From: a virus | Strand: one strand, 5' to 3' | Virus record (IMG/VR): IMGVR_UViG_3300005731_000127 | Coordinates: 1 to 64,000 of that record | Length of the DNA stretch: 64,000 bases | Shown: positions 34,427 through 63,214 of the stretch, one piece after another | How the letters are laid out: each line of letters starts with the position of its first letter | Numbering within the stretch: the stretch's first letter is position 1 | Translations under genes and position numbers: made by a program | Notes under the pieces: model-generated | Database searches by the model: none | Told to the model about the DNA's origin: nothing | The model's input: the letters and a program-made list of their open reading frames with translations, nothing else

Positions 34427-34913
34427 ACTCTTTCCATTCTTTAGGGGGGTTATGGATATTTAACAAAGAAATAGGCTCTCTTGGTTTACTCTGTAAATGT
34501 AAACCGCATTTAGCTAGGGACTTGTCTCCCTTCTTGGCGTTGCATGATCTACAGCAAGCTACCATGTTTTCCCATGTGTTTGCTTCTTTTTTGTTATCAA
34601 ACTTACTTACGGGCGTTATGTGGTCAATGGTAGCGTCCGCTCTAGTTAGTTCGGCGTTACAGTATTGACACGTATACTTATCTCTTGACAAGATAGTTTT
34701 CTTAGTAGGTTGTCTGTTCTTGTGGGGATTGATGAACTTCGGATAAACCATTACTGCTGGTAGAGCGAAGCTCTGAGTTTCCGACCAAATACTTTCTTCG
34801 TAATAAGACAGGACTCTCATTCCATTATCTTTAAAAGATAACAGCAAACCTCTTCTTACATTGATGACTGTTAAAGGCTGATACGCCACGTTTAAAATTA
34901 ATGTCCTTTTCAT
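34416..34913 (-). CDS. HNH endonuclease
   Basis: 165 aa. ILSRDKYTCQYCNAELTRADATIDHITPVSKFD...NMVACCRSCNAKKG has CxxC...DH...N...CxxCN-x-K, the classic HNH/zinc fold. The N-terminal ILNVAYQPLTVINVRRGLLL is typical of the stand-alone phage HNH family. Free-standing; it may cut DNA in recombination, packaging or as a mobile element. Confidence 0.88.
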   Translation of the reverse strand: MKRTLILNVAYQPLTVINVRRGLLLSFKDNGMRVLSYYEESIWSETQSFALPAVMVYPKFINPHKNRQPTKKTILSRDKYTCQYCNAELTRADATIDHITPVSKFDNKKEANTWENMVACCRSCNAKKGDKSLAKCGLHLQSKPREPISLLNIHNPPKEWKEYVY

Positions 34914-35206
34914 GAGTATAGCTGGTACTTTCCTAGTTTGTCCCTAGTCGCTTGATCCAGTATAGGTTCTGTTGCTATGGATGTTAGTTGATGTCCGATG
35001 TCAGGTTCCCGGAATTCCGAAAATCCTATGTTTTCTTCTTTTAGGTGTTGTTGTATTCTAAGCAGCCTAGCTTCGCTCCTAGAGGCGATCAGTATAACAG
35101 ACGGGTGTTCAGTCAAATTATACTTCTGAGACATCTCAATGGCTGCGTGGCACGATTGTACCGCTATCTGTGGTGTTGTCAAGTCTTTTCGTGTAAAAAT
35201 ATACAC
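34910..35206 (-). CDS. Peptidyl-tRNA hydrolase 2-like protein
   Basis: 98 aa from GTG 35206. RKDLTTPQIAVQSCHAAIE and FREPDIGHQLTSIATEP match PTH2 (K/H-x-G/Q-C-H and F-x-E-P-D-x-G-x-x-x-T-x-I-A). PTH2 frees peptides from peptidyl-tRNA dropped by ribosomes. It lies directly downstream of the terminator that ends the tRNA array, and within 11 kb of the phage tmRNA. Confidence 0.78.
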   Translation of the reverse strand: MYIFTRKDLTTPQIAVQSCHAAIEMSQKYNLTEHPSVILIASRSEARLLRIQQHLKEENIGFSEFREPDIGHQLTSIATEPILDQATRDKLGKYQLYS

Positions 35207-37552: not shown

Positions 37553-37682
37553 TAGCCACTTTTTTTTGCGTTGCTATGCTACCGTTACATCACACCCCCG
37601 TAGTTTTTAATGGGGGCGGAAGGATTCGAACCTCCACAAGTTCTTTTACAGAGAATTGCTAATAATTTGCTGTAAGTGGCTA
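37553..37682 (-). ncRNA. Y-RNA-like element 1 / permuted tRNA-Tyr(GTA) module
   Basis: Closed by a perfect TAGCCAC/GTGGCTA stem. Just inside is TTACAGCAAATTATTA. Then come, in this order, the 3' part of a tRNA (anticodon loop CTGTAAA, T arm GGAGG-TTCGAAT-CCTTC, acceptor 3' strand CGCCCCC+A; 37655-37611), an 11-base linker, and the 5' part (acceptor GGGGGTG, D arm; 37599-37574), then GCAACGC plus A-run. The acceptor strands pair 7/7 with one G-U. Joining the halves gives a full anticodon stem GTTCT/AGAAC and a 71-base tRNA. Either a YrlA-type Y RNA with closed tRNA module or a permuted tRNA gene; next to the Ro-like gene. Confidence 0.7.
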
Positions 37683-37685
37683 TAT

Positions 37686-37760
37686 GTGATTGGTAGGGCT
37701 TGATCCTACATTACGAGAGGCTCTATAACCAATATTGCGTTTTCATTAAACTACAATCAC
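37686..37760 (-). tRNA. tRNA, isotype undetermined
   Basis: Acceptor GTGATTG/CAATCAC, short D arm GTTT/AAAC, T arm GTAGG-ATCAAGC-CCTAC. The 29 bases between D and T arms do not fold into a standard anticodon arm; a GAG/CTC variable hairpin is possible. Confidence 0.55.
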
Positions 37761-37765
37761 AAAAT

Positions 37766-37838
37766 GCCGCTGGTGGGAATCGAACCGCACACATCTCCCA
37801 GTAAAACGTGGGAGGCTCTACCGTTGAGCTACAGCGAC
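37766..37838 (-). tRNA. tRNA-Lys(TTT)-like with 8-base anticodon loop
   Basis: Acceptor GTCGCTG/CAGCGGC, D arm GCTC/GAGC, anticodon stem TCCCA/TGGGA closing an 8-base loop CGTTTTAC, and a T stem that pairs only if one C is bulged. Could be a real variant or a locally inaccurate/decayed gene. Confidence 0.5.
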
Positions 37839-37939
37839 TTGTGATAGTCTCTCCTATCAGTCACGTCCTATCACTTTTGGGTTGCATACCCCGCTATCCC
37901 TGCCGGGAAACATGACTTCGACGTTCAAGGGTCCGTTTC
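37839..37939 (-). other. Intergenic spacer with GTGATAG/CTATCAC hairpin
   Basis: About 100 bases after the Ro-like gene. A perfect 7-bp inverted repeat (37841-37847 and 37868-37874) closes a 20-base loop, reminiscent of the closing stems of the nearby RNA elements but without their internal motif. No poly-U follows. Confidence 0.4.
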
Positions 37940-39589
37940 TTATACTTCTACAAGATGCAGAAGCTCTTGATCCATTGCTGCATTGAACAAGTCCGCAGCA
38001 GTTTCAATTTTTCCGTCCATGATGAATTTCACGTTCGAGGCTGAGTATCCAGACATGTAGAATACGTTTCGTGTATTTCCGAATGTCTCGAATTTAGTTC
38101 CACTTCTTCCTCCATAAAACGAATTAGGGATATTCCATAGTACGATCTTAAACGAGTTAACATAGTCGTCTGAAAATCCCGCGTTTCTTAGCTTTCGCAA
38201 TGCAGACTCTACATTAGTCTTTCCTAAATCTGCCGGATTAAATTCTCCGTCACTGATACACAGAATTCCTTCTGGAAAATCAGCTTCTGGAGTTCCGGAG
38301 TTTAACAAGTCGCAGAAAAGACTGATAACACTTTGGAAGTTTGTTCCGCCATAAGAATTACCTCTGTCGTTATGCCATTTTTCTGATGGCGTTCCGCCTC
38401 TCCATTTTTTCATTGCCGCTTTATTTGCAAATTCAATATAGTGATCAGTAAAATCACCAGTCAAGAATTCGTTGAAGTATAAAGCAATCGCCTTAGAAAC
38501 ATCGTATGATGAATACTTAGTTCCGGTTGCTGTACATTCCATTGATGACGAAGTATCGCGAACAACAATAAATCGAGTTAAGTTTTCGCTATCCTTAGCT
38601 TTATTAACAATTTCGTAAAACTGCTTATCGACAGTCTTTGTGAAATTCGCATCATGGTTAAAATTTAGCTCACAAAGTAGTTCGTGAACATAACCAGTAT
38701 ACTTAACTGTTTCTTCTTTGTCAACCCATCCTGAGTATTTATCTGACAATCCTTGGTTTTTCAAGAATTTGCTTCTAACAAGAAGATTTAATGCACGACC
38801 ATGAATTTTAGCAAAGTCGATCTTGTCAAATTTTGACTGAGAAATCAACTGCTGCCACTCATGAGCGGTTCCGCTAGACTTAAGTTTGCGGTATTTTTTG
38901 TAAGTTCTGCCATCGTTTTTCTTTCCGAATAGCCTAGAACAAATCCACTTAGCAATTTGGTTATTTGCTTCAGCTTCAATTGTTGTAACTTGTGAGTTAG
39001 AACGGATTTGCGGCAAATACTTCTTCATCAAGTTGACTGTTTTGTCATTCTCAAGTAAAGAAAGAAGCAGATCACCGAACCTTGACCAGTTCAAAATACT
39101 ACCAGACCAGTCATGGTAAACCAAGTCAGCACGCAACATCACAATCAGGTCTTTACAAGACCCAGCCGATAAGAAGAGTCCAATGTTTTTCCAGAAAAGA
39201 CTTTCATCTTTTTGGTGCAACCAGATCATTCTCATGATTGATTCGTGCTTGAGTTCCGCACCAGACTGAGCCTCTTTAGTCTTAATGCCCATCCCGATAA
39301 TGTCAGTCTTACGACTAATCATTCTCATGTAGATAGTAAACTTAACAAAAAGTTCCGGATTATCCGCGAACAATACAGAACAATCTTTAGCGATATCGGA
39401 ATATCTACGTGGAGATTTGTATTCTCCAAGCTTACCAAACTGGTCTACATATTCGTTTCCAGTCGTCGAAAATTTTTCCGCACCGTTACCACTTAGTGTA
39501 CGAGCGGAGTTTTTCATTCCGGCGTTGACGAATGAGTTGTTCGAAGTTTGCGTGCTTTTTCTTTTAATTGTTCTCTTTGTGTCAAACAT
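37940..39589 (-). CDS. Ro-like (DUF2828/TROVE-type) RNA-binding protein with vWA domain
   Basis: 549 aa. A helical-repeat N-terminal part (FADNPELFVKFTIYMRM; DESLFWKNIGLFLSAGSCKDLI; YRKLKSSGTAHEWQQLISQSKFDKIDFAKIHGRAL) leads to a C-terminal vWA domain with the metal site DTSSSM (DxSxS), Thr in YGGTNFQS and Asp in LCISDGEF. This HEAT-ring plus vWA plan is that of Ro60/Rsr and DUF2828 proteins, which bind misfolded RNAs and Y RNAs. AAGGAG ribosome site. It is embedded in the tRNA array and flanked by four structurally related small RNA elements, supporting an RNA quality-control role. Confidence 0.78.
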   Translation of the reverse strand: MFDTKRTIKRKSTQTSNNSFVNAGMKNSARTLSGNGAEKFSTTGNEYVDQFGKLGEYKSPRRYSDIAKDCSVLFADNPELFVKFTIYMRMISRKTDIIGMGIKTKEAQSGAELKHESIMRMIWLHQKDESLFWKNIGLFLSAGSCKDLIVMLRADLVYHDWSGSILNWSRFGDLLLSLLENDKTVNLMKKYLPQIRSNSQVTTIEAEANNQIAKWICSRLFGKKNDGRTYKKYRKLKSSGTAHEWQQLISQSKFDKIDFAKIHGRALNLLVRSKFLKNQGLSDKYSGWVDKEETVKYTGYVHELLCELNFNHDANFTKTVDKQFYEIVNKAKDSENLTRFIVVRDTSSSMECTATGTKYSSYDVSKAIALYFNEFLTGDFTDHYIEFANKAAMKKWRGGTPSEKWHNDRGNSYGGTNFQSVISLFCDLLNSGTPEADFPEGILCISDGEFNPADLGKTNVESALRKLRNAGFSDDYVNSFKIVLWNIPNSFYGGRSGTKFETFGNTRNVFYMSGYSASNVKFIMDGKIETAADLFNAAMDQELLHLVEV

Positions 39590-39620
39590 TTTGTTCTCCT
39601 TGTGAGGTTCCTAAAAAATC

Positions 39621-39674
39621 AGATTACGTTTTATTTTTACCAAAAAAATTTTTATAATTTGCTGATTGTAATCT
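39621..39674 (-). ncRNA. Y-RNA-like element 4 (no tRNA module)
   Basis: Closed by AGATTAC/GTAATCT. Inside the 5' strand is AATCAGCAAATTATAAAA, matching the motif of elements 1-3; the rest is an A/T-rich loop. Lies between the Ro-like gene and element 2. May be a minimal Ro-binding RNA; function inferred from shared motif only. Confidence 0.5.
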
Positions 39675-39679
39675 TATAC

Positions 39680-39801
39680 GGATTTCGTTTTTCGTTGCTC
39701 TACCAATTGAGCTACCTCACCTTGAAAGCAAAAGCGATGAGGATTGGACTCGAACCAATAACCTACGGCGTGAAATGCAAATAAATTGCTGTATGAAATC
39801 C
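39680..39801 (-). ncRNA. Y-RNA-like element 2 / permuted tRNA-Glu(TTC) module
   Basis: Closed by GGATTTC/GAAATCC. After ATACAGCAATTTATTT come the tRNA 3' part (loop ATTTCAC, T arm ATTGG-TTCGAGT-CCAAT, acceptor CCTCATC + G; 39778-39735), a 13-base linker, then the 5' part (acceptor GGTGAGG, D arm GCTC/GAGC; 39721-39693) and AACGAAAAAC. Joining the halves makes anticodon stem ACGGC/GCCGT, a 73-base tRNA-Glu with G73. As for element 1, either a Y RNA with tRNA-like domain or a permuted tRNA. Confidence 0.72.
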
Positions 39802-39808
39802 TTTAATA

Positions 39809-39890
39809 CTTCTGGAGGGAGTTGCACCCATTGATATCTACCCCACTGTTTTATATCGCTGGCTTCGTAGACCAGTGTGGGAACCAGAAG
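39809..39890 (-). tRNA. tRNA-Arg(ACG)-like, no standard D arm
   Basis: Acceptor CTTCTGG/CCAGAAG. The anticodon arm CTGGT-CTACGAA-GCCAG follows after only 8 bases, so there is no D arm in the usual place. A separate arm GATAT/ATATC with a 15-base loop sits between anticodon and T arms (T loop TGCAACT on a 3-bp GGG/CCC stem). Same plan as the Arg(TCT) gene at 44.3 kb. Confidence 0.5.
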
Positions 39891-39899
39891 CAAAAAAAC

Positions 39900-39960
39900 A
39901 AGTCTCATTATTAAAAAATTTTACAGATTTTCTTTTTAAATAATTTGCTGTATGAGACTT
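39900..39960 (-). ncRNA. Y-RNA-like element 3 (no tRNA module)
   Basis: Closed by a 9-bp stem AAGTCTCAT/ATGAGACTT. Directly inside is ACAGCAAATTATTT, the shared motif, and then a small AAAAT-CTGTAAA-ATTTT hairpin. No T or D arm. Lies between tRNA-Glu and the Arg-like gene. Confidence 0.5.
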
Positions 39961-45721: not shown

Positions 45722-46262
45722 AATAAGGTTCTGACAAACCCCATGACTACTTACGCAGCCAAACTAACATTTCTGTTTGCATTTACGTTTTGATACGTTT
45801 TTAGGTAGCCTCATATCATCTACCGCATGCAGTTATCACCTACGTGACCAGTCGATACCATTCGTTCCCGTATATGTACTGGCTTCTTTTTAACTTTTAT
45901 ACCTAGTACGAACCCTATTTGCACTTCTTTATGTGTTTTACAACAGGGGAAATGGAAACGGCGAGAATTGAACTCGCGTGTTGTATCATTTCAACAATAA
46001 CCTCTACATGCTTATCCTACTTCAAGCAGGAAAAGTCTGGTTATGTGTCCAGAGACGTGATTTCGTTACGCCCACTTAATCCTAAGACCCGTAGTCACGC
46101 TGTTGTTAGGCAACAGCACCTTTGATACCGGCACGCTGTTTCGCATTGATTTATACGGCAACAATCGCTTGTTGGACTTCCCGTAATCTCCACACCCTAT
46201 GCTTTATCCGTTTAACTTAAGCCATCACAGGCAGTCAACCTATTCTGGATGCTGTTAAACTT
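45722..46262 (-). ncRNA. ssrA: Circularly permuted tmRNA (ssrA)
   Basis: Transcribed order is 3' piece then 5' piece. The 3' piece (about 46262-45953) ends ATAAGCATGTAG...GCGAG-TTCAATT-CTCGC, acceptor CGTTTCC, A73, a close match to the tmRNA 3' end. After an 83-base linker the 5' piece starts at 45869: GGGAACG (pairs 7/7 with CGTTTCC, one G-U), then GGTATCGACTGG (tmRNA GGATTCGAC motif). Helix P2 forms between CTGCATGC (45832-45825) and GCATGTAG (46011-46004). The tag frame at 45780-45751 reads ANRNVSLAA stop. It frees stalled ribosomes. Confidence 0.85.
45751..45780 (-). CDS. tmRNA proteolysis tag ANRNVSLAA
   Basis: Resume codon GCA followed by eight codons and TAA inside the tmRNA 5' piece. 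The tag ends Leu-Ala-Ala, as do bacterial ssrA tags recognised by ClpXP. Not an independent gene. Confidence 0.8.
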   Translation of the reverse strand, partial: ANRNVSLAA

Positions 46263-55858: not shown

Positions 55859-55892
55859 GTCTGGTCTTTTCGTTACAAAAAAATACAATAAT

Positions 55893-55964
55893 GCTCCCAC
55901 AGGGACTCGAACCCTGAACATTCCGTTTTAGAGGCGGCTACTCTACCAATTGAGTTATAGGAGC
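55893..55964 (-). tRNA. tRNA with possible CTA (amber) anticodon
   Basis: Acceptor GCTCCTA/TGGGAGC, D arm ACTC/GAGT, T arm TCAGG-GTTCGAG-type (CAGGG-TTCGAGT-CCCTG). Middle region GCCGC-CTCTAAA-ACGGA has three central pairs and mismatches at both stem ends; read as drawn the anticodon is CTA. The only tRNA outside the main array. Confidence 0.55.
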
Positions 55965-55973
55965 AAGAGCATA

Positions 55974-59842: not shown

Positions 59843-60039
59843 TTTTTAGCCTTGGTTAATCCTAAATCTATCATTTTGTCAGTACAGGAGTTACATAAAG
59901 TTCTTCTTTGCATTAGTCCGGCAGAAGCGGTTCCTTGTGCGTATGGGTTTAACTTTTCTTCAGTATAACACCAAAGCTCATAAACCGCCTCAACTTTTTC
60001 TTTATTTGTTGAGCATCTATCACAAAACGGTTCACGCAT
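59839..60039 (-). CDS. Zinc-binding small protein
   Basis: 66 aa; FCDRCSTNKE and RTLCNSCTDK give two CxxC pairs. Starts inside the end of the NAMPT-like gene. Unknown function. Confidence 0.6.
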   Translation of the reverse strand: MREPFCDRCSTNKEKVEAVYELWCYTEEKLNPYAQGTASAGLMQRRTLCNSCTDKMIDLGLTKAKK

Positions 60040-61747
60040 TAACTCTCCCCCTAATTTCGCTCAGTGAAGTCTCTCGTAAGAGAGTACCATCTTCGAACAC
60101 AGTTGTCAATAGTCCTTCCTCCTCTTCTTCCCATGTGCATTCGTCCATAAATGTTAGGTCTTCGTTAACCCGGAGTAGACCGCGAGCAGAATTCTTCATG
60201 CCTGAATCAGTTTTTGGTTGTTTAAAGATCGGTCGTGATTCGACTTTTCCTTCAATAGTAACTTCGCCATAAGTCGCTTTAACCGCAAGACCTAGCGTGT
60301 CTCTAGTGTTCATATTGTATGTAAAGCTACCAATACCTAACACGATATTATCAGAAGCGAACCCTTTAGCCTTTAATCGCCTTAGAATCTCTTCTTGGCG
60401 ATCAAGTGTGATAGCGTCACCATAGATCAACCCAATGTGAGAGTCAAGAGTTTTGTATCCCTTTTCGTTTGCTGTTCCTCCAAACATATCCCATAGAATC
60501 TCGATAGAGCCTTTTTGTTCTGGAGTGAGTTCAATTTCTTTTAACTCTTTCTTCCAGATACCATCAATGTAATAATACTGTTTATCATAACGATTCCAAT
60601 CTGGCTCAATATAGCATTCGTAGTATTTATCTCGGAATTTAAATTTCATCGTTAAATCACCACCGTATTCTCCATGTGGCGTATCTTCTCTGATTTTTTC
60701 TTCCATAATCTCCGCACACCAATCCTTTAGTGCAGCATTATCTTTGTGGTATTTACTATACTCTTCCGTTATATCTGTAATTTCTTCACCACAGATGATT
60801 TCTACAGGGTCTCCACTGTCGGGCCTAACCACGTACTTACCATCTCTCGCCGTAATTCGATCTTTAAATTTTGGGAGTGTCTCGGTGATCATCTTCCAGT
60901 AATCAAATCCATCACTGACAACAGATACAATACCTTCAGGATAAATGTTAAGCATAGTTTCGACGTAAAGGTCTTCATCAATATGACCCTTTACCAAAGA
61001 ATTGAGGCACTGCACTGAATGCTCTGTAGCGGCGACTGAATACGCTACATCATCGATAGGGGCATTATAGTATTCTTCGGCAAACATCAATACAGGAACC
61101 GTGTCAGACCCCTTAAATGCAGTAACGTGACCCAAGGCACTTAAGCACGCACCTTCTACACCAACCATTCCCCGCATAGAGAAGTCATGACCTTGAAAAT
61201 CGATAAACTCTTTGTTCGCACCGGTTTCTTCCGCATACTTTTCAAACTTTTGACGATACAGGTCAGCAATTGTAGCAGAAACAATTGGCTTCCAAACAAT
61301 ATCACTCAATAAAGTTTCTAAAGAGTTGGTCAACCATCCAAAATCTGGATGTGTATTATAGATCGTCATACTTGGCGTTCGGATTGGGACGCGAGACCCT
61401 TCCGGCAGAGCTTTGATTTTAATAGGAAGGTATCCGAGATCATGTAACGCAGCGATGTGTTCAGTCTCCATAGGAGAACCAAAATGTGCTGCTGTCACAC
61501 GTTTGACTTCTGCGATGACTTCTTCTTTATCTCTATCAAAAAAGTTTTCATTGAATTGATCAATTAGGTACTCTTTAATAAAATACTGCAAACCGCAAAA
61601 AACATGAGAATCGACATCATAACAACGCTTGCTTGATCTTGCTGTTAAATTTGAATAAACCAAGCTGATACCGGCAGGGTATTGTTTGTAGTGCGATAAC
61701 TTATAGCTATCCAAAAGAAGAACGGTGATAAAATCTTTAATTCTCAT
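60032..61747 (-). CDS. Nicotinamide phosphoribosyltransferase-like protein (NAMPT/Namat)
   Basis: 571 aa, type II PRTase fold. DSYKLSHYKQYP at the start, DFQGHDFSMRGMVGVEGACL, VAATEHSVQ (the catalytic His region), VVRPDSGDPVEII (phosphate/PRPP site) and GIGSFTYNMNTRDTLGLAVKAT (C-terminal substrate site). It is longer than human NAMPT by about 80 residues, mainly in the DITEEYSKYHKDN-YECYIEPDW insertion. It makes NMN from nicotinamide and PRPP, or in phage NARP1 systems attaches ADP-ribose pyrophosphate to nicotinamide. Two genes upstream is a Prs-like gene. Confidence 0.88.
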   Translation of the reverse strand: MRIKDFITVLLLDSYKLSHYKQYPAGISLVYSNLTARSSKRCYDVDSHVFCGLQYFIKEYLIDQFNENFFDRDKEEVIAEVKRVTAAHFGSPMETEHIAALHDLGYLPIKIKALPEGSRVPIRTPSMTIYNTHPDFGWLTNSLETLLSDIVWKPIVSATIADLYRQKFEKYAEETGANKEFIDFQGHDFSMRGMVGVEGACLSALGHVTAFKGSDTVPVLMFAEEYYNAPIDDVAYSVAATEHSVQCLNSLVKGHIDEDLYVETMLNIYPEGIVSVVSDGFDYWKMITETLPKFKDRITARDGKYVVRPDSGDPVEIICGEEITDITEEYSKYHKDNAALKDWCAEIMEEKIREDTPHGEYGGDLTMKFKFRDKYYECYIEPDWNRYDKQYYYIDGIWKKELKEIELTPEQKGSIEILWDMFGGTANEKGYKTLDSHIGLIYGDAITLDRQEEILRRLKAKGFASDNIVLGIGSFTYNMNTRDTLGLAVKATYGEVTIEGKVESRPIFKQPKTDSGMKNSARGLLRVNEDLTFMDECTWEEEEEGLLTTVFEDGTLLRETSLSEIRGRVNA

Positions 61748-62389: not shown

Positions 62390-63214
62390 TCAAACCACTC
62401 GCTTAATAATCATTTTGGTTGTTGGTTTTAAATCATCTCGGTACGAGTTGGTCGTATAAATTTTGTCGACCCCCTCTAATTCTGTTCCTTTAGAGAATAT
62501 ACCGTGGTAAACCACTAAGTCAACCCTTTTTGCTCCACTTTCGCGAAGTTTTCCTGCTAATCCTGAGAAAGTTCCTCCACCATCACAGAGGTCATCAATG
62601 ATAATACAGTGTTCTGGCACTTCCGCAGGACAAGAAAACCCAGATAAACTACCGTCCTTCATATTTCTATGCTTAGAGCATTCCATAACAATAGGACTAA
62701 CAGACATATATTTATGATGATCATTCCAGTACCGCTTTACAGCACCAGCGTCCGGCAGACAAATACACCATGACTTCTCTTTAGTCGATTCTGGTATTGC
62801 ATTTTGTTGATGAACATCCAGTAATAACTTTAAAGCGGAATTTATAAAAGCCCCCTCAACCGCAGTATGCGAATAAGCATCAAGTCTATCGTTAGTTGAT
62901 TGAGAATGAGACCATACGGTGGAAATCTCACTAAACCCCATTCCATTAATGATATCACAAACAACCTTGAGTGTATTTGGGGATTGCATGTCAATAGCAC
63001 GATCCATTCTTGACCCAACCAGATAATGCAGTACAAGTGAAATATTCTTAATACCTTTTCTTTTTTGAACGTCAACGAGTTGCCCCAACTCGATTAAGTC
63101 CTGAAAAGATCGAATTGACGCAATTACTGAGTTGTCTAGACCAAGATCGCCACTTCTGAACGACATTCCGTCAGGAAAACTTTTTCGTTCAAGTTTATTA
63201 AATAGTATTGTCAT
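62390..63214 (-). CDS. Ribose-phosphate pyrophosphokinase-like (Prs/Adps)
   Basis: 274 aa, shorter than Prs (about 315). ERKSFPDGMSF (substrate region), LVLHYLVGSRMDRAID (flexible loop R-x-D-R), and IIIDDLCDGGGTFSGLAGKL (the PRPP-binding loop with DD-x-C/G-G-G-T). It pyrophosphorylates ribose 5-phosphate, or ADP-ribose if it is the Adps enzyme of NARP1. Paired with the NAMPT-like gene in one operon. Confidence 0.85.
   Translation of the reverse strand: MTILFNKLERKSFPDGMSFRSGDLGLDNSVIASIRSFQDLIELGQLVDVQKRKGIKNISLVLHYLVGSRMDRAIDMQSPNTLKVVCDIINGMGFSEISTVWSHSQSTNDRLDAYSHTAVEGAFINSALKLLLDVHQQNAIPESTKEKSWCICLPDAGAVKRYWNDHHKYMSVSPIVMECSKHRNMKDGSLSGFSCPAEVPEHCIIIDDLCDGGGTFSGLAGKLRESGAKRVDLVVYHGIFSKGTELEGVDKIYTTNSYRDDLKPTTKMIIKRVV

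What the first reader, a model, noticed from the sequence alone, without database searches (positions are those of the whole stretch)
37553..39960. Ro-like protein gene surrounded by four related small RNA elements
Seen: the 549-aa TROVE/DUF2828-vWA gene has element 1 on one side and elements 4, 2 and 3 on the other. All four are on the minus strand, closed by a 7-9 bp stem of different sequence, and carry CAGCAAATTAT or a near match (CAGCAATTTAT in element 2) immediately inside the 5' strand. Known: Ro60/Rsr binds Y RNAs through such terminal stems, and bacterial YrlA RNAs carry a tRNA-like module. Inference: a phage-borne Ro-Y RNA set with two full and two minimal RNAs.
Basis: partly seen in the sequence, partly recalled or inferred. 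Interest (0 to 1): 0.93.

Follow-up and report, generated by a model that had tools for sequence, protein, structure and literature searches.

The report
Phage Ro-like protein with docking RNAs
This phage carries a relative of the human Ro60 autoantigen next to four small RNA elements that share one docking motif, two of them carrying a tRNA look-alike; the same motif recurs beside this gene in many phages and bacteria and matches a class of amoeba RNAs reported as unique to social amoebae.

Summary
The 549-aa protein has the full Ro60 fold (AlphaFold2 pLDDT 90; six best PDB matches all TROVE/Ro60) but by sequence belongs to the DUF2828/DUF7788 branch. The four minus-strand elements belong to a large family: a stem of at least 7 bp with variable sequence, starting 10 nt before CAGCAA, whose 3' strand is followed by G. 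It lies beside this gene in most of 94 phage loci (including relatives of Felix O1, A511, CP8 and mycobacteriophages) and in 33 of 40 independent bacterial loci, but in 1 of 31 classical TROVE loci. Stems co-vary massively (213 self-matches versus 3 permuted). Elements often form arrays with 4-nt GATA spacers; payloads vary from none to a YrlA-like permuted tRNA. In 16 loci an element encloses the gene's own start codon, suggesting autoregulation. The docking end is not the classical Y RNA stem; it resembles Dictyostelium Class I RNAs (RF01414, E 2.3e-5 here, 2.8e-7 in a relative), described as unique to dictyostelids. The Ro/Y-RNA reading is supported as 'works like', with a different docking code. 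Transcription and binding are not shown; whether Dictyostelium encodes DUF2828 was not testable here.

The parts
37940..39589 (-). Ro-like protein gene (549 aa): HEAT ring about 20-335, vWA domain about 336-549 with MIDAS residues D345/S347/S349/T416/D447
   Evidence: Pfam DUF7788 31.6 bits, PHROG 850 5e-29, AF2 pLDDT 90.2 pTM 0.89, Foldseek best hits TROVE/Ro60, MIDAS residues invariant in 48 relatives
39900..39960 (-). Element 4: minimal docking RNA, 61 nt, 9-bp terminal stem
   Evidence: position 8 pair A-U here, U-A in the relative L008
39680..39801 (-). Element 2: docking stem plus permuted tRNA-like module, 122 nt
   Evidence: (YrlA 37.2 bits, E 1e-4); two compensatory pair changes in relative L009 (GAGTTTC/GAAACTC)
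39692..39764 (-). tRNA-like module of element 2 (T-arm, acceptor-like helix, D-arm in permuted order)
39621..39674 (-). Element 3: minimal docking RNA, 54 nt, in the leader of the Ro-like gene
   Evidence: RF01414 31.0 bits, E 2.3e-5 for this genome
37553..37682 (-). Element 1: docking stem plus permuted tRNA-like module, 130 nt, 2 nt from one tRNA and 6 nt from the next
   Evidence: in relative L008 the same docking stem is present without the payload (L008:4843)
37571..37640 (-). tRNA-like module of element 1
39940..39950 (-). docking motif CAGCAAATTAT of element 4
39781..39791 (-). docking motif CAGCAATTTAT of element 2
39654..39664 (-). docking motif CAGCAAATTAT of element 3
37662..37672 (-). 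docking motif CAGCAAATTAT of element 1

Best explanation
The locus encodes a Ro-type ribonucleoprotein of the DUF2828/DUF7788 branch. Shown by sequence and model: a Ro60-fold protein (HEAT ring plus vWA with complete MIDAS), and a family of small RNA elements with a common docking end (stem of variable sequence, 10-nt ruler, CAGCAA, 3' flanking G) that co-occurs with this protein branch. Inferred: each element is released as a discrete small RNA and held by the protein through the docking end. The variable interior acts as an interchangeable adaptor: minimal RNAs occupy or gate the ring, and permuted tRNA-like RNAs present a tRNA surface that brings tRNA-handling proteins (processing, modification or decay enzymes) to the ring, as proposed for YrlA/Rsr. 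Elements placed in the leader or around the start codon let the protein shut down its own translation when free RNA partners run out.
For: Fold: six best PDB matches are TROVE/Ro60, E 1e-7 to 6e-6 over about 540-595 columns, including Ro60 of Thermus phage phiLo. Co-occurrence: docking elements (ruler exactly 10 plus G) in 53/62 close, 11/23 distant and 7/9 GenBank phage loci; with ruler 9-11 in 33/40 bacterial loci found afterwards and 1/31 classical TROVE loci. Stem covariation: the heptamer upstream of CAGCAA finds its own complement followed by G in 213 of 666 sites versus 3.0 after permutation, 126 distinct stems; repeated in GenBank phages 22 vs 0.8 and bacteria 55 vs 2.3. tRNA module: 98.4% of cells paired, 14 of 16 pairs with changes on both sides, covariation 0.915 vs 0.229 shuffled. 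Tandem arrays: 90 neighbouring pairs exactly 4 nt apart, 70 of them GATA. Payload swap: element 1 docking stem without payload in L008. Start-codon element: 16 of 16 AG-ATG loci have the partner, 0 of 23 others; one of them is an RF01414 hit (L014:3000).
Against: No transcript or binding data. The sequence profile reaches Ro60 only at E 0.063 and TM-scores are moderate (0.42-0.57). About 15% of relatives have no recognisable element near the gene (16 of 106). Rfam YrlA and Class I matches are below their gathering scores. Autoregulation rests on element position only, and the window's own start codon lacks the enclosing element. Plain folding of the four elements is only moderately better than shuffles (z -1.6 to -3.0).
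Confidence: 0.82

Rival explanations
1. The elements are cis-acting parts of the mRNA or tRNA precursor (processing signals or operators), not free RNAs; the tRNA-like interiors are decaying tRNA genes captured in the array.
For: They sit in tRNA arrays and in gene leaders, on the same strand as the gene; 4-nt GATA spacers look like processing joints; one subset encloses the start codon.
Against: tRNA modules are in permuted order with a seven-pair acceptor-like helix that co-varies at every pair, which decay would not maintain; payloads lie inside an intact docking stem; phage 7t3 has elements about 160-170 kb from the gene.
Confidence: 0.1
2. Same RNP, different purpose: the tRNA-like RNAs are decoys or sponges for host anticodon nucleases or other tRNA-targeting defences, with the Ro-like protein only stabilising them.
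For: Phages here carry tRNA arrays; competitive inhibition of an anticodon nuclease by YrlA was suggested in PMC7790460; the YrlA-type module has no anticodon arm.
Against: More than half of the elements carry no tRNA part; the YrlA tRNA-like domain was reported not to be cut by the nuclease (PMC7790460); a full protein ring and MIDAS are conserved.
Confidence: 0.2
3. The resemblance to Dictyostelium Class I RNAs is convergence on a short AU-rich stem plus CAGCAA, with no shared partner protein.
For: The motif is short, all RF01414 scores are below the gathering score, and the known Class I binder is the RRM protein Rnp1A.
Against: All nine RF01414 hits with E<1e-3 in 12 whole phage genomes fall beside the gene on docking elements; shared CUUACAGCAA, 10-nt spacing, variable stem, AG start and CUG end.
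Confidence: 0.35
4. Chance hairpins beside a common motif.
For: The window is AT-rich (35.7% G+C) and short stems are frequent.
Against: 243/786 versus 41/14,440 in control hexamers; permutation test; independent bacterial set.
Confidence: 0.01

Closest known systems
Bacterial Rsr (Ro60 ortholog, TROVE) with YrlA/YrlB Y RNAs
   Same: Ring plus vWA protein encoded beside small RNAs; one RNA type carries a permuted tRNA-like module matching RF02553 (E 1e-4 for element 2); a terminal stem closes the RNA.
   Different: Protein is DUF2828/DUF7788, not PF05731 by sequence; docking end is stem+CAGCAA instead of the YrlA stem; up to 9 elements per locus, in arrays with GATA spacers; varied payloads; start-codon elements.
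Dictyostelium Class I RNAs (RF01414)
   Same: Size 42-65 nt for the minimal form, terminal stem of variable sequence, CUUACAGCAA next to the 5' strand, AG start and CUG end.
   Different: Phage and bacterial genomes, next to a Ro-like gene, in arrays, and with tRNA-like versions; no DUSE promoter expected; no known Ro-type partner in Dictyostelium.
Ro60 of Thermus phage phiLo (PDB 9l5y) and the 'Ro-like RNA binding protein' of mycobacteriophages
   Same: Phage-encoded Ro-fold proteins; the mycobacteriophage Zakai protein is in the same family as the window protein and has three docking elements.
   Different: I found no report of associated RNAs for the DUF2828 phages in the held literature.

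Membership tests
Ro60/TROVE protein | HEAT-repeat ring plus vWA fold | tested here: met
   AF2 model pLDDT 90; Foldseek top six hits all TROVE/Ro60
Ro60/TROVE protein | Match to Pfam TROVE PF05731 above cut-off | tested here: not met
   Only DUF7788 found; 50 relatives match DUF7788/DUF2828, none TROVE
Ro60/TROVE protein | Binds Y RNA | not testable with these tools
   needs pull-down or EMSA
DUF2828/DUF7788 family | Pfam models above cut-off | tested here: met
   DUF7788 31.6 vs 27.1 bits; DUF2828 in 30 of 50 family members, not in the window protein itself
YrlA (RF02553) | Gathering score 69 | tested here: not met
   Element 2 37.2 bits; best in a DUF2828 locus 47.8
YrlA (RF02553) | Permuted tRNA-like module: T-arm, closed acceptor-like helix, D-arm | tested here: met
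   20-sequence alignment with covariation in all three helices
YrlA (RF02553) | YrlA-type terminal (Ro-binding) stem | tested here: not met
   Lower-stem positions mismatch in the RF02553 alignment; the window hit covers only the tRNA module, positions 23-87; DUF2828 elements have stem+CAGCAA, which classical TROVE loci lack
Dictyostelium Class I RNA (RF01414) | Gathering score 41.5 | tested here: not met
   31.0 for element 3, best relative 39.3
Dictyostelium Class I RNA (RF01414) | Terminal stem conserved in pairing, not sequence; 11-nt motif inside the 5' strand; 42-65 nt | tested here: met
   Elements 3 and 4 are 54 and 61 nt; motif logo; definition from PMC7919456. Element 3 itself has AAUCAGCAA rather than CUUACAGCAA
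Dictyostelium Class I RNA (RF01414) | DUSE promoter and Rnp1A binding | not testable with these tools
   eukaryote-specific features

The most novel reading that the evidence does not exclude
Dictyostelium Class I RNAs, described as unique to social amoebae, are eukaryotic members of a widespread family of docking RNAs for DUF2828-type Ro proteins that is common in phages and bacteria. Their unexplained terminal stem and 11-nt motif would be the protein-docking end, and a DUF2828/DUF7788 protein would be their missing core partner.
Probability: 0.5. Interest if true: 0.93.

Novelty: new variant of a known kind. Interest (0 to 1): 0.86.

Why it matters
It would extend the Ro/Y-RNA principle to a second protein branch found in at least 681 sequenced phages, give that branch a readable RNA docking code, and provide simple laboratory phages for studying RNA adaptors that mimic tRNA. 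It also offers a direct test of what Dictyostelium Class I RNAs are and what they bind, and predicts a simple autoregulatory switch on the start codon.

Tried and rejected
Rfam at gathering thresholds gave only tRNAs and a permuted tmRNA. PDB search by sequence gave no relative for the single protein and only the RO60 vWA at E 0.063 with the profile. Promoter and terminator scans found little more than shuffles. No paper linking DUF2828, or Class I RNAs, with Ro/Y RNAs was found; the main reviews and the 2014 Y RNA survey are not held, so a prior mention cannot be excluded. Aeromonas Aeh1 showed no element by the scan of its neighbourhood; Salmonella phage 7t3 looked negative next to the gene but has elements elsewhere. 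A covariance model of the docking end was not built, because Rfam RF01414, made independently, already served as one. The classical-TROVE comparison used only about 1.5 kb flanks, so its negative result is somewhat weaker than the positive ones.

Full report
WHAT WAS CHECKED. The window is 64 kb of an 83,659-base IMG/VR virus record with DnaB-like helicase, UvsX and ribonucleotide reductase genes and a long tRNA array. Their exact limits are 39900-39960, 39680-39801, 39621-39674 and 37553-37682.

PROTEIN. The protein matches PHROG 850 'RNA-binding protein' (5e-29) and Pfam DUF7788; its family matches DUF7788 in 49 and DUF2828 in 30 of 50 members. An AlphaFold2 model from 48 window and locus sequences has pLDDT 90.2 and pTM 0.89. 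The six best PDB matches are all TROVE/Ro60, including Ro60 of Thermus phage phiLo, over the whole length. The MIDAS residues D345, S347, S349, T416 and D447 are invariant. By fold it is a Ro60-type protein; by sequence it is a separate branch.

RNA FAMILY. From 85 further phage loci the element resolves into a rule: a stem of 7-10 bp whose outer end lies 10 nt before CAGCAA, usually C(U/A)(U/A)ACAGCAA(A)U, and a 3' strand followed by G in 93%. In 94 loci 243 of 786 CAGCAA sites obey the full rule, against 41 of 14,440 for control hexamers. A permutation test that keeps the heptamers but breaks their pairing to the downstream sequence gives 213 observed against 3.0 expected, with 126 different stems, so the stem is kept by compensatory change. 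Orthologous examples: element 2 GGATTTC/GAAATCC here and GAGTTTC/GAAACTC in L009; element 4 position 8 A-U here and U-A in L008. The rule then predicted elements in 33 of 40 bacterial loci not used to derive it and in Listeria A511, Enterococcus EFGrNG, mycobacteriophage Zakai, a Felix O1-like phage, Campylobacter CP8, a staphylococcal phage and Bacillus PJN02. Classical TROVE loci have it in 1 of 31 cases, although several have YrlA.

ARRAYS AND PAYLOADS. Elements often stand in tandem, up to 7 in a row, with 4-nt spacers that are GATA in 70 of 90 cases. Of 260 confident elements most are minimal; many carry a T-arm; over 20 carry T-arm, acceptor-like helix and D-arm in permuted order, and four carry a tRNA in normal order. 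The permuted module shows 14 of 16 pairs with changes on both sides and matches YrlA. In relative L008 the docking stem of element 1 is present with the payload missing, so dock and payload evolve separately.

START-CODON ELEMENT. In 16 of 39 close relatives the gene starts AG-ATG-TT and the 5' strand of a docking element includes the start codon. In all 16 a partner RRCATCT (with one G-U variant AATATCT), followed by G in 15, lies 33-63 nt inside the gene; none of the other 23 has one. The conserved N-terminal MFxSK codons spell the CAGCAA motif in most of them, although the first 15 residues of the window protein are predicted disordered. This is best read as feedback control by the protein on its own message. 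Only position supports it, and the window gene itself has element 3 in its leader instead.

LINK TO DICTYOSTELIUM. Rfam's Class I RNA model, built from amoeba sequences, finds the minimal elements: element 3 here with E 2.3e-5 and an element of Leptolyngbya phage Lbo-JY46 with E 2.8e-7 for a whole-genome search; all hits below 1e-3 in 12 phage genomes lie at these arrays. The alignment shares CUUACAGCAA, the spacing, the AG start and the CUG end. Class I RNAs are described as 42-65 nt, with a stem conserved in pairing only and an 11-nt motif, and as unique to dictyostelids (PMC7919456). Scores are below the gathering score. Homology or recognition by related proteins is therefore plausible but not proven, and I could not search a Dictyostelium genome for DUF2828.

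VERDICT. As a family statement it needs correction: a DUF2828 Ro-like protein with its own docking code, sharing the tRNA-mimic module with YrlA and the docking end with Class I RNAs. Shown: fold (by model), element family, covariation, co-occurrence, arrays. Inferred: transcription as free RNAs, binding, adaptor function, autoregulation. From memory, a 2014 survey reported Y RNAs near Ro60 in more than 250 bacterial and phage species; it was not held, so how far DUF2828 loci were covered there is unknown to me. A mycobacteriophage protein of the same annotation, LeBron gp53 'Ro-like RNA-binding protein', was reported toxic when overexpressed (PMC13148394); I did not verify that gp53 belongs to this family.

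Noticed in passing
window 45751-46011 (-): Permuted tmRNA gene in a phage (Rfam RF04321, 68.9 bits).
   Followed up: no
window 37765-37838 (-): tRNA with an enlarged anticodon loop read as UUUU by ARAGORN; possible frameshift-type tRNA.
   Followed up: no
window 55891-55965 (-): tRNA with CUA anticodon called tRNA-Pyl by ARAGORN; possible amber suppressor.
   Followed up: no
window 39807-39893 (-): A further tRNA-like hairpin (CTTCTGG/CCAGAAG) without CAGCAA between elements 4 and 2; no counterpart seen at that place in relative L008.
   Followed up: partly
window 34910-35206 (-): Short PTH2-like peptidyl-tRNA hydrolase next to the tRNA array.
   Followed up: no
window 60032-61747 and 62390-63214 (-): Nicotinamide phosphoribosyltransferase and ribose-phosphate pyrophosphokinase genes close together; looks like a phage NAD+ rebuilding pathway.
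   Followed up: no
L020:2868-2955: Near-threshold RAGATH-1 hammerhead ribozyme (49.0 bits, gathering 56.3) just upstream of the Ro-like gene.
   Followed up: no
L141:2576-2641 and 2716-2781: Two near-threshold matches to the nematode sRNA family RF01656 beside a classical TROVE gene from the cyanobacterial phylum search.
   Followed up: no
L091:2498-3049: ROOL-like RNA (87.5 bits, gathering 99.1) upstream of the docking elements in Listeria phage A511.
   Followed up: no
L038:4528-4642, L050:5989-6102, L069:5763-5880, L070:4137-4252: Docking elements that enclose a tRNA-like domain in normal, unpermuted order.
   Followed up: partly
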